From assembly GCA_029961685.1 (NCBI GenBank), contig JARWKL010000043.1:47501-111500 (forward strand): a stretch of 64,000 bases of DNA, written 5' to 3'. The stretch's first letter is position 1. Every line of letters begins with the position of its first letter. This document shows positions 180-61,444 of this stretch, in pieces. The translations under genes were made by a program, and so were the position numbers. Source of the stretch: Aristolochia californica. Its lineage: Eukaryota > Streptophyta > Magnoliopsida > Piperales > Aristolochiaceae. The notes beneath the pieces are model-generated. The model saw only the letters and a list, made by a program, of their open reading frames with translations. It was not told where the DNA came from and did not search any database.

Positions 180-530
180 GCAGCAAGCAGCTGGGATGCG
201 CGCTAGCCATACTAGCGCACAAGCCTTAGGGCACTTGCTGCCCGCGAGCTGCAGAGCCCGCTACTTTGGGCGTGTGCGATGCAGCTCGCTTTCTGGCTCG
301 CTTCGCTGCTTCGCTCGCAGGCTTTCGCGTAGCAGTGCCCCCTCTTGCAATTTTTTGCCCACTTGCTGCCATGCGCACACGCCCCTTGGCTCCTTATAGC
401 AATAGTGGCACCCGCGCTTCGCTCGCAGGCTTTCACGCAGCAGTGCCCGCGGGCACTCTAAGCCCGCGGGCTTGTGCGCTAGAAGAGCGCTTAGCCAGCG
501 AGCACTGCAGCTTCAAAAGGTGAGCGAGCG
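180..530. repeat. GC-rich modular repeat cluster 1
   Basis: This block is built from short modules that recur across the window: GCGCACAAGCC and its complement, CACTTGCTGCCATGCGCACA, TTCGCTCGCAGGCTTTC, and GGGCGTGTGCGATGCAG. It contains two back-to-back perfect palindromes at 442-457 (AGTGCCCGCGGGCACT) and 460-473 (AAGCCCGCGGGCTT). Reading frames through it on both strands are open only because the DNA is GC-rich, and none resembles a protein family I know. The module CACTTGCTGCCATGCGCACA recurs near 10.68, 41.44 and 43.23 kb. Confidence 0.8.
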
Positions 531-568
531 AGACGGCTGCCGTATCTTGCTGGCGGAGTCAAGCCGTT

Positions 569-670
569 GCTAGCTAGCTAGCTAGCTAGCGCACAAGCCC
601 CTTAGCCATAGGGCACTTAGAGTTTTTAAGCAGGCTGTTATGTTATAAGTTGCGCGCTAGGCTAGCGCGC
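569..670. repeat. GCTA microsatellite and repeat modules
   Basis: Positions 569-590 are five and a half copies of GCTA. They run directly into the GCGCACAAGCCCCTTAGCC module of the dispersed GC-rich family, followed near 652-672 by GCGCGCTAGGCTAGCGCGCC, which is nearly self-complementary. The microsatellite probably grew from the GCTAGCGC ends that many of these modules carry. Confidence 0.75.
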
Positions 671-1640
671 CTTCCCTCCTTCTCTCACTTCGGAAAGATT
701 TCGCAGTCTTTTTTTATGATGACCTGGTCGAGAGAGTACGATACATCGGTGTAAAAGATTGAGTGGAATCAGTGAGGTTGGTTAAATTAGTGCTGGAAAT
801 TGATCCTATGGGTAAGGTAAGATTCACACTTTTTCATTCGAAAGGGGTTCCGAATGGAATGATTATTCGATTCCTGGTGGTCCGGGATAAACCAGAGCCC
901 TTCTTTCGTCGGCTGATGCAGCTCCGCTTTACTCGGCTTTTGAGTCAAACCACTTCTTTGGCTGAAATAAATAATGTTTCAAGGGGTGTTGACCTATTCG
1001 ACTTCGTTTCATCGGTTGATACTTATGAGATTCCGGCTCCTGGCGCAAACTGAGGGCAGGGAAGGATGAGATTTGATTCTCTTAGATCAAGGAAGACTCC
1101 AAAGGAGCTCTTTCATTGAAGTGTCTGCCGCCCGGCCTGGTTACCCCAATTCTGAAGTATTTTCGTGCCACGATCTTATCATTGAATAATCAACGCAACT
1201 TTTTTTGGTTGTTCACCGCTGGATGATAGATTGTTTGGCAGTGGTTACTAAACTAAGGGTCCCCCTGAACTCTCAAGATCGATAGCTCCCCTTCCGATTA
1301 CCTCTCTTTGTCTTTGCACTTCCTTCCCTATCCCCTTCCTCTTTTCTCCCCTGCTCTGCTATTCTTTCATCTCAAGGTCTCGTCGAGGTATCGAGGTTTC
1401 GCTCCCTAGTGGTATAGTTCGATCTTGAGGGGCATCAGGGACAGCGAGAAGCTTCTCACAGAGATAACTCGCATATGAAAGAAAGGATGCTTCGCTTGCC
1501 ATTGAAGGCGGTTCCTGCTTCTAGCGCGAAAGCAGACAACGCAAGGAGGGACGCGGGCCAAATACAGCCCACCTAACAGCAGCTAGAAAGGCTATAGGCG
1601 CGAAAGAAAAGCGAGCAGGGAATTCGGCTGAAGATCGGTT
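671..1640. other. Unrecognised intergenic DNA with one short ORF
   Basis: No known gene is visible here. A 96-codon open frame runs from 763 to 1053 on the plus strand. Its sequence is not obviously low-complexity but matches no mitochondrial, plastid or transposon family I recognise, and it has no supporting context, so it is noted rather than called as a gene. Confidence 0.4.
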
Positions 1641-1653
1641 AGCTGAGCCAGCC

Positions 1654-58168: not shown

Positions 58169-58344
58169 GCTTGTAATCCTCCAAGCTACCAACAAATGAA
58201 CTTGAACTATACCATTTGATCCCCCTCTCAGTCCAAATTGTACTAAAATCCATCATGGGGGGATTTGCCCATGAATACATTGATCCTTTCGAACTTATTC
58301 CGACTTTAATCTGAAATTGAGTATTTTCTAAGAAAAGTGAAATA

Positions 58345-58460
58345 TTCATTATTTATGAATTATCATTTCTAAATGAATTCTCATATGAATTTACATTTCA
58401 TTCTCTCATTCTATTTCGAAATTGAATTAGAATTTAGAAATTCTTTGATTCTTGTCTTTT
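58345..58460. repeat. ATTC-rich low-complexity tract at MTPT end
   Basis: Words ATTTATGAATTATCATTTC, ACATTTCATTCTCTCATTC and GAATTAGAATTTAGAAATTC form an A/T-rich, loosely repetitive tract directly after the plastid-derived segment. It resembles the tracts at 46.9-47.3 and 62.04-62.25 kb. Confidence 0.7.
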
Positions 58461-61341
58461 TTTTTATAGAACCTCTGTATTCTTAAAATACAGTATCTAC
58501 AACCCTAGTCATGCTTCTTTTTATTTATAATCGGGCTTCTTTGTAAAAATGCTGATACGAACAGTTAGGTTGTGAGGAAAGATCGAGGTCATTGCTTCTT
58601 AAGCGAGATCCTGGTCAATGTTAAATACGAGTAAGGGGGTCGGCTATGCATAGAGTGGTTCGGTTCCTGCGGGAAGGCTTGAAAAGGTCAGAAGGTAAGG
58701 CCATGGAGGAGCATACCTGACGGCTTCTATAAGATTTGACCTAACGGCCTCTGTGACCAAGCGAGTGAAGATTGTTAGCCATGGGGGAGAGTGACTAGTC
58801 CCTGGCAGTGACGAAAGCAGACCTTAGCATAGACCGGAGTAGCGCCATAGAGGAGAGCTGACCAACCATGGACAATAGACCTACGCGCTAGTGAGCAGTG
58901 ACCAACAGAGATTAATTACAAGCAAAGAGGTACGAAGTGCTTGACTTTGGACATGCCAGTTGCGAAGCTCGTTCAGAAACAGAGGATCGACTAGACGATC
59001 TAGGGAAAAAAAGGGGGGCCTGAGATTGATTTCCCTATTCCTGATGGCAGGCCGGCATGAAAGGAAAGGCCTACTACAGCTTCTGCGTCTACAACAGCTC
59101 CAGTGCCTACACCTATTTCTAACTTGAGTGACAAAAGGCTCATCCAGAGTGTATGCCATCTGCTCGCCTGTCAGTTCTAGTCGTAGGTCTTCTGTCTATT
59201 GAACTGAACGGAAAAAAGTAGTTTGGTTTCAACCTCCGACAGAGGCAAAGAGTCAGGCACGCGCTCCGACAGAGCACACGGACTAATCAATCGACACTCG
59301 TTAGTTGGCCTAAGGAGCTAGAACCCCGTATAATCAATTGAAGGTATCAACCCGCAAACAAAGACTCAAAAGATTGATTAGAGCTCATTTCATTTGAAGC
59401 TATAAGCGTGAGATAAGAGAGGCTAGGCTGGCGGGAACAAGTGGGTGGGGCTTTCCCAATAGGAGTTGCGCTTGCGGGGAGTCTTCCTGTGGCGAGCAGC
59501 AATTCCTGTGGAAAAGTCAGACCTGGCTCGCAACTGTATTAGAAGGGCACTCGCAGCTCGCTTAAGGCCTCGAAAAGTCCCATCACTCGCTGCTCGCAGG
59601 TTTCGGTTCAATATAAAGAAAGAAAAGATGAAGCTATCTGGTAGATAAAGACAGATCAACATGTCCTTGCTTCGAATATCAGATACGAAGAGATAAAAAC
59701 GTCTGAGATTGCGTGCCTTGCCCGGTCAGTTGATAGGGGAGCAAGAAGAAACTAGTTAGACCGGAGCTTACCGAAAGACTAGTTTCCATCCATAAGCAAA
59801 AGCAGGTACCTCGAGGGACAAAGCACGGAATGAAAGATCTTCCTTCAAGGCAATGTTAATTGGCCGATGGATGGAGAGTGACTAACTTACTTGACAGAAG
59901 ACTGATCAGCTTACTTTGAAAAAAATGGCTTGAGAGAGACGGATAGAGGGTTCCAAACCTCTTCCTGTGCCTGAGTGATGGCTTTCCAGAGGAGATTGCT
60001 TTCAAGACCAGAGGCGCAGATGAGAGTTTCAAGGACAATGGACCGAGTTCGAGACCGAGGAGCTGCTGACCGAGAGGATAGTTTCCTGGGAAGAGACTCT
60101 TTCTTTCCTTTGATTGATGGCCTTTCGAGTGTCTATTCCTGAGTGAGGTCGGGCTGTCAGGCCCGCTGACTCGGAAGTTGCCTTTGCTCGTGTTCCCGCT
60201 GGCTGGCCAAAATCTGAGTCGTTTCCTAGCCTCGCGGACAAGGCTCTGGAAGAGGGCCTTCCGTCCAGGTCTTGTTTTGAGGCCTGAGAGAAGATGCATT
60301 GGCAAAAGTACGTGTAGAAGCTGAAACTGCTTATCCGGGTGCGGCTTTCTAGCCATCAGGATAGAAAAGTAGATCGTTCAACTGACGCTTATGTTAGCCT
60401 TTCGTTCACTTACAAAACTGATTAGGATATGAAATAGAGAGTGGAGTAAGCCCCTTTAGAGATAAGGGCGAGGATATAAAATAGGTAACAATTGCTAATA
60501 TATTAATTAAGGTGGTGGAGGTTACCTTTCCTATTGCTCGTCTGGAAGTTCTTTTCCTTTCTTCTTCCGGTGTCTTGATTTCCTGCTTGCATCTGAATGA
60601 GAGCACTAAGAAGTGAGGGCTCCTATTCTTCGAACGGGGACGCCATCTTCAAGCTCATCTCCCCATCCTGTGGGAATAATCTCACTGATATCTGGGTAGA
60701 CCGGCATAGTAGGCAGCTTGATCTTCTATCTTCTTCTTCCCATGTGTTCAACCCAAACTTCTGCGTCTGAGGGCTGAGGAAGAGGCGGCAACTCAAGGCT
60801 GAAGACTATCTCTTGAATGTCTATGATGTCATGAGTCTTCTCTTTGTATGTGACCCTTATTGGAGTAAGAGATCCGAAGCTGAGGACCATTGTTGCCGTT
60901 TCGTTTCTGGTACAGCTGCTACTTCATCTTTGGCGGCATATATAGCTCCAATTCTTTTCCCCTTTTCAGAGTCGCTAAGCTCGGCATCTGGGCAACGGCA
61001 GGCTGTGGAACTGGAACAGCATTCTGAAGACACGCTTTCACTATCTGAGCTACTGCTGGAATATACGCTGTCACTGCTTTCTGAGCTTGCCTTCACTGCA
61101 GCACTAACTCTCTTGCTAGTGCAATCTTGACTATCAAGTCCCGCTCTTCTTGGGAGCGCTGAACTCTGATGTATTCTTGCGGGAACTACGCTTTTTCTTC
61201 TAACTGGAAGAGTAAGAGGAACTCTTCTGGTAAGATCTCCGTTTGTCTTTGCGATGCTTCTTTTTCTTGTCAGACTTAGGAGGTTTTAATTCTTTAATTC
61301 TCCGACACCGAATTGATCGCAGATGTCAGAGCCAACAAGCT
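58461..61341. other. Unrecognised DNA with a Ser-rich frame
   Basis: A minus-strand frame of 166 codons (59856-60356) is unidentified. Around 61096-60857 the minus strand encodes a Ser-rich acidic segment (SVYSSSSSDSESVSSECCSS) preceded by Lys-rich residues, which may be decayed gag- or coat-like sequence. No tRNA or rRNA is recognised. Confidence 0.35.
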
Positions 61342-61444
61342 ACGGACTGAGCGCTGCGCGCGAAAGCCGTAGCGCTAACGGACTGAGCGCTGCGCGCGAA
61401 AGGCTCTGTAAGACCTCGCGTTAGCGCAGCCGTTTGATTGCTCC
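61331..61444. repeat. Module B duplicated, then module C inverted
   Basis: GCCAACAAGCT precedes module B at 61342-61370. AGCGCTA then joins a second copy at 61378-61402. Module C follows in reverse orientation at 61417-61444, identical over 28 nt to 8921-8948 and 10612-10639. This array shows B and C modules side by side. Confidence 0.9.

What the first reader, a model, noticed from the sequence alone, without database searches (positions are those of the whole stretch)
180..61444. A modular family of GC-rich palindromic repeats scattered across the window
About fifteen clusters (for example 180-670, 2041-2250, 5958-6180, 7801-8130, 9931-10090, 10612-10760, 34841-35020, 36736-36902, 39911-40280, 41431-41650, 43823-44065, 45183-45480, 48151-48345, 49601-49735, 61331-61444) are assembled from a limited set of short modules. 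Examples are GCGCACAAGCC, TTGCTGCCATGCGCACA, ACGGACTGAGCGCTGCGCGC, GGAGCAATCAAACGGCTGCG and GAGGGTTGGTGTGG. Modules appear in different orders and orientations and often form perfect stems. This is more structured than the usual random short repeats of plant mitochondria and recalls yeast mitochondrial GC clusters or Cycas Bpu elements. It may be a lineage-specific mobile or recombinogenic element family.
Basis: partly seen in the sequence, partly recalled or inferred. Interest (0 to 1): 0.88.

Follow-up and report, generated by a model that had tools for sequence, protein, structure and literature searches.

The report
Shuffled hairpin repeats in plant mitochondria
A stretch of apparently plant mitochondrial DNA holds about 25 patches built from a small set of short, GC-rich repeats, some of them predicted to form hairpins, in changing order and orientation; they likely spread by being copied into broken DNA during repair, and are one more case of a kind of repeat already known from yeast and rice mitochondria.

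Summary
The window looks like plant mitochondrial DNA; most of its repeats are a few families of short GC-rich modules, not pieces of one large repeat (longest shared stretches 76 and 74 nt). GCGCACAAGCC occurs 17 times (0.07 expected); 65 14-mers occur 4 or more times (0 in 20 shuffles), 60 of them GC-rich. Hairpins are not universal: 10 of 25 patches fold better than shuffles at z below -2 (controls 3 of 25).

Modules share ends, join in different orders, and one loop is flipped between its arms. In a Ty3-retrotransposon fragment a 45-nt module stands in place of about 24 nt of pol that all 10 homologs spanning the site keep. Three of four Ty3 fragments have an end within 20 nt of a patch (one read by eye). 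None of 12 elements has a flush target-site duplication.

Cycas/Ginkgo Bpu elements were tested for and are absent. I place these with mitochondrial palindromic GC clusters as a kind and propose spread by copying during error-prone break repair. The species, the rest of the genome and empty sites in relatives could not be examined.

The parts
200..662 (.). Cluster of family A modules (CTAGCGCACAAGCC arms at 213+, 469-, 587+; CCACTTGCTGCCATGCGCACACGCC at 359+)
   Evidence: fold z -2.4 over 180-670
2048..2285 (.). Family D/E cluster (two AGACGA...TCGTCT hairpins each followed by GATTCACTTGACA; GCCCGAGAGC copies); next to a Ty3-like fragment
5961..6173 (.). Family D 21-bp hairpin (5992-6050) plus family B/C element (6106-6173)
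   Evidence: fold z -7.6 over 5940-6180
7807..7849 (-). Family E module, inverted copy of 2143-2185 (93%)
8026..8134 (-). Family D element with its loop inverted relative to GATTCACTTGACA
8919..8972 (+). Family C element, with GAGGGTTGGTGTGG inverted relative to the GGAGCAATCAAAC end
9936..10052 (.). Weak cluster (CGCGAAAGCCAGCGAGCG, CAATAGGG motifs)
   Evidence: no self-match at E 0.01
10610..10760 (+). Composite: truncated family C element joined to family A modules
16518..16580 (-). Family C element with both ends (CCAACAAGC ... GATTGCTC), 5 nt from the start of a Ty3 fragment at 16585
20972..21170 (.). Diverged family D/E cluster
26592..26681 (+). Family A cluster
33854..33933 (+). Complete family C element, starting 72 nt past the end of rps12
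   Evidence: rps12
34841..34989 (.). Family A element with inverted arms CTAGCGCACAAGCC / GGGCTTGTGCGCTAG
   Evidence: z -3.7
36733..36889 (.). Cluster with a TAGTAAGAG...CTCTTACTA hairpin and GGGGCACTTGACGCCCC module
   Evidence: z -3.4
39923..40281 (.). Large composite with family A modules; 40224-40274 is a family B inverted repeat (GCCAACAAGCAACGG/CCGTTGCTTGTTGGC)
41427..41643 (.). Family A composite with a 43-nt tandem pair
42810..42843 (+). Family D flank module (TTCACTTGATAGAAGCACGAGTCGAACGGCT), 46 nt from the tblastn end of the Ty3 homology
43228..43272 (+). 45-nt family A module standing in place of about 24 nt of a Ty3 pol gene
43822..44056 (.). Nested hairpin cluster meeting the start of Ty3 homology at 43824 (that start read by eye)
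   Evidence: z -7.2 over 43813-44065
45223..45485 (.). Family A composite
   Evidence: z -6.0 over 45183-45490
46187..46266 (+). Family C element, 95% identical over 76 nt to 33856-33931
48144..48351 (.). Family A element with inverted arms
   Evidence: z -3.1
49597..49778 (.). Composite of a family C fragment, family A modules and a hairpin (GCGCAAAGTAGCAAT...ATTGCTACTTTGCGC)
   Evidence: z -3.9
50362..50431 (+). Family B element, core partly duplicated
   Evidence: z -2.4
61324..61449 (.). Family B core twice, then family C end
42889..43824 (-). Ty3 retrotransposon fragment (reverse transcriptase end to RNase H), interrupted by the 43228 module
   Evidence: the start at 43824 read by eye
16585..17733 (+). 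Ty3 retrotransposon fragment starting next to a family C element
1780..2068 (-). Ty3-like fragment (31-36% identity) starting at the family D cluster (tblastn end overlaps the cluster by 20 nt)

Best explanation
The patches are several families of short GC-rich repeats, some predicted to form strong hairpins, in what is likely plant mitochondrial DNA, and they likely spread as short pieces copied into break sites by error-prone repair, being merged, cut and flipped on the way. Shown: copy number above chance, shared ends, changing module order and orientation, one loop flipped between its arms, a 45-nt module in place of about 24 nt of a Ty3 pol gene, some Ty3 fragment ends near module patches, and no flush target-site duplication in 12 elements. 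Inferred: that hairpins stall replication or break, that a broken end then primes on or copies another module copy by template switching (microhomology-mediated break-induced replication or end joining), and that this both multiplies the modules and makes them mark old breakpoints. Families (my naming): A (CTAGCGCACAAGCC arms with CACTTGCTGCCATGCGCACA), B (ACGGACTGAGCGCTGCGCGCGAAAGCCGT core), C (ends GGAGCAATCAAAC and CCAACAAGC), D/E (AGACGA...TCGTCT hairpin with GATTCACTTGACA; GCCCGAGAGC).
For: Copy numbers. Of 80 self-matches at E 0.01 or better, 69 have GC of 45% or more; the longest are 76 and 74 nt. Shared end: GGAGCAATCAAAC is exact at 5 places (8921+, 10612+, 21805-, 33854+, 61432-) and the 8 nt outside differ, save a shared AG at the first two. 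CCAACAAGC is exact at 7 places, 6 in patches. Orientation: the loop between AGACGA arms reads AGCGCATCG at 2048 and 2183 but CGATGCGCT at 8025(-), with GATTCACTTGACA on the same side. The GGGTTGGTGTGG motif is inverted relative to the C end at 8921 and 16518 compared with 33854 and 46187. Arms: copy 61329 has GCTACGG/CCGTAGC where 40222(-) and 6103 have GCAACGG/CCGTTGC, a matched change. Before/after site: 10 of 23 homologs span it, and all 10 read [KR]E[RQ]-xxYY[LI]S[RK] where the window has KEKGLTRLGACAHGSKWS, net +21 nt; the extra DNA is module 43228-43272, matched at 10673 (46 nt), 359 (32 nt) and 41436 (28 nt). Ty3 ends within 50 nt of a patch edge: 3 of 5 tblastn-defined ends, rotation P 0.003, or 3 of 7 with two faded or query-limited ends kept, P 0.008. 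No flush duplication of 2 nt or more in any of 12 elements (172 of 2000 random places have one). Published: microhomology-based repair in plant mitochondria (passages of PMC6981420); palindrome-linked indels and loop microinversions in an algal plastome (passages of PMC7043297).
Against: Only one interior insertion with a known before-state was found, and it rests on protein homologs, not on a nucleotide empty site. The indels seen in that Ty3 fragment are in frame; tblastn favours such indels, but this also fits changes made while pol was still translated, before transfer to the mitochondrion. 15 of 25 patches do not reach z below -2, so hairpins cannot be the whole story. The matched arm change has a counterexample: copy 50382 carries GCTACGG with unchanged CCGTTGC. 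Shared ends fit discrete mobile units as well or better. The Ty3-end test is small and weak at short range: within 10 nt 1 of 5 tblastn ends (P 0.08), 1 of 7 with all ends kept (P 0.11).
Confidence: 0.55

Rival explanations
1. Discrete mobile elements that transpose as units at the DNA level, as proposed for yeast mitochondrial GC clusters, helped by a protein encoded elsewhere.
For: Ends shared by several C copies with differing flanks; the C element is 95% identical over 76 nt at 33856 and 46189 in different surroundings; yeast clusters also merge and shuffle (passages of PMC4478555).
Against: No flush direct repeats in 12 elements, whereas the most abundant yeast clusters are flanked by AG or ACT. 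The Ty3 site lost about 24 nt. Several copies are truncated or merged.
Confidence: 0.2
2. Hairpin RNAs from these loci are reverse-transcribed and inserted (suggested in print for Allomyces and yeast hairpin elements).
For: Lack of flanking duplications, the argument used for Allomyces (passage of PMC2800124); retrotransposition is also considered for yeast clusters (passage of PMC4478555).
Against: Both orientations occur and short internal pieces are flipped, which RNA copying does not readily explain. No intact reverse transcriptase among the 23 ORFs scanned. Tails and transcripts were not examined.
Confidence: 0.08
3. The modules do not move; they are recombination hotspots, and long-standing copies were scattered when larger segments rearranged around them.
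For: Some Ty3 fragments end near module patches. Plant mitochondrial DNA rearranges through repeats (passages of PMC6981420).
Against: The module in the Ty3 pol reading frame has Ty3 sequence on both sides, so it entered existing DNA. Copy numbers and short shared lengths need a multiplying process.
Confidence: 0.12
4. Functional signals: conserved stem-loops acting in RNA 3' processing or as protein-binding sites.
For: A complete C element starts 72 nt past rps12. That 3' inverted repeats are processing signals in plant mitochondria is the title of a cited paper (reference list).
Against: Of 25 patches only that one lies within 1000 nt of nad3, rps12, atp1 or the three tRNAs; it does not fold better than shuffles (z 0.06); and no patch matches an Rfam family at its cutoff.
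Confidence: 0.05

Closest known systems
Yeast (Saccharomyces) mitochondrial GC clusters, e.g. GC42
   Same: Short, GC-rich, dispersed, some palindromic; modules merge, shuffle and share ends (passages of PMC4478555)
   Different: The most abundant yeast clusters are flanked by AG or ACT direct repeats; here no flush duplications. Yeast mtDNA is AT-rich (recalled); this host is about 47% GC
Rice palindromic repeated sequences (PRSs; Nakazono et al. 1994)
   Same: Palindromic repeats in a flowering-plant mitochondrial genome, by the title inserted after Oryza diverged (reference lists)
   Different: Could not be compared: the paper and its sequences were not seen
Cycas and Ginkgo Bpu elements
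   Same: Short dispersed elements in seed-plant mitochondrial DNA
   Different: 36-nt AAGG-bounded sequence, about 500 variants in each of two Cycas genomes; absent here
Palindromic repeats of the Chlorosarcinopsis eremi plastome
   Same: Indels and loop microinversions tied to palindromes; break repair proposed (passages of PMC7043297)
   Different: AT-rich 8-13-nt stems with 3-nt loops in a green-algal plastid
Sponge repetitive hairpin-forming elements and Allomyces double hairpins
   Same: Scattered mitochondrial hairpins; no flanking duplications for Allomyces (passages of PMC2800124)
   Different: Different hosts; the keratose-sponge ones are AT-rich

Membership tests
Mitochondrial palindromic GC clusters (as a kind) | Higher GC than the surroundings | tested here: met
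   58% in the 25 patches against 46% in the rest
Mitochondrial palindromic GC clusters (as a kind) | Dispersed repeats well above chance | tested here: met
Mitochondrial palindromic GC clusters (as a kind) | Palindromic (hairpin) structure | tested here: inconclusive
   10 of 25 patches with z below -2, 3 of 25 controls
Yeast GC clusters | Flanking AG or ACT direct repeats | tested here: not met
   no flush repeat of 2 nt or more in 12 elements with ends set by me
Yeast GC clusters | Presence/absence variation between strains | not testable with these tools
   no relatives reachable
Bpu elements | 36-nt consensus with at most 7 mismatches | tested here: not met
Rice PRSs | Sequence identity to PRS | not testable with these tools
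   sequences not available
DNA transposon derivatives | Target-site duplication | tested here: not met
   no flush repeat in 12 elements
DNA transposon derivatives | Transposase of a parent element | not tested
   only 23 distinct ORFs were given to Pfam; no transposase among them

The most novel reading that the evidence does not exclude
A flowering-plant mitochondrion carries its own self-multiplying set of hairpin modules that behave as a repair-patch library: breaks are filled with module copies, so the modules multiply, record past breakpoints, and steer how foreign DNA such as nuclear retrotransposons is cut up and joined in the genome.
Probability: 0.3. Interest if true: 0.72.

Novelty: new member of a known kind. 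Interest (0 to 1): 0.5.

Why it matters
Why plant mitochondrial spacers grow and rearrange while genes stay almost unchanged is a long-standing question, and repair errors are a leading answer (abstract and passages of PMC7043297). A family of short modules with readable ends, flips, mergers and a before/after site in a foreign gene would let that idea be tested copy by copy in relatives of this plant.

Tried and rejected
Bpu kinship: rejected. One large ordinary repeat: rejected. Chance in GC-rich DNA: rejected. Bacterial, plasmid or viral source: no sign, but few probes: a 4.2-kb stretch had no match in plasmids; a 26-mer had no exact match in genome contigs; a 24-mer and a 19-mer had none in viral contigs. 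A 14-mer had 87 viral hits, which I judged chance for so short a pattern and did not examine. Reading frames through patches as hidden genes: two searches, no homolog (at E 0.1, at E 0.01). Rfam: at a relaxed threshold a MIR2084 match on both strands of 43869-43984 at 31.7 bits (cutoff 100) was judged a chance long hairpin. A TTTCATC repeat near 16511 and 16585 was not counted as a duplication, since the right copy is Ty3 coding sequence and not flush. A 10-nt CGCAGCGCTC patch in the Ty3 fragment near 43645, next to a 4-residue gap, was left out as too short. Solved structures for the short Ty3 piece: none. Species: passages of the Butomus mitochondrial paper (PMC3634813; GC 49.1%, no 'palindrom' or 'hairpin' in it) did not settle it. 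Literature: nine searches, read as titles and abstract starts, listed no description of these modules; most subscription papers are missing from the library.
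Full report
What the window is. The window encodes nad3 (32825-33355), rps12 (33399-33782) and atp1 (from 62984), with plastid-type DNA (rpl2 end, psaB part, rps14 and three tRNAs; 54.7-57.7 kb) and broken Ty3 retrotransposon pieces. From these I infer a flowering-plant mitochondrial genome; GC is about 47%. The species is unknown to me, and the rest of the genome could not be searched: the tool gave no answer eleven times.

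Noticed in passing
window 15381-15398, 20282-20299, 23533-23550: Three solitary copies of AGGGTTGGTGTGGCTTCC outside the patches; possibly an end of a further element.
   Followed up: partly
window 21590-22258: ORF with a weak match to a plant viral movement protein domain (PF01107, E 1.4e-4, 22 bits, cutoff 23), perhaps a piece of an integrated plant pararetrovirus; a C-end motif CCGTTTGATTGCTCC lies inside it.
   Followed up: no
window 54671-57714: Plastid-type block (rpl2 end, psaB part, rps14, tRNAs His, Met, Gly) free of the patches.
   Followed up: partly
window 46976-47230 and 62090-62224: AT-rich TTTCATTC-type tandem arrays at two places that share sequence, an unrelated repeat class.
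   Followed up: no
window 43869-43984: Sub-threshold Rfam match to MIR2084 on both strands (31.7 and 29.9 bits, cutoff 100), judged a chance match of a long hairpin.
   Followed up: partly
window 62411-62503: Group II intron end domain (RF00029) 0.5 kb upstream of atp1.
   Followed up: no
window 16585 and 2041-2068: Two Ty3 fragments start at nearly the same codon of reverse transcriptase (the LG-F/H-x-V region), each at a different module family (the second read by eye); unexplained.
   Followed up: partly
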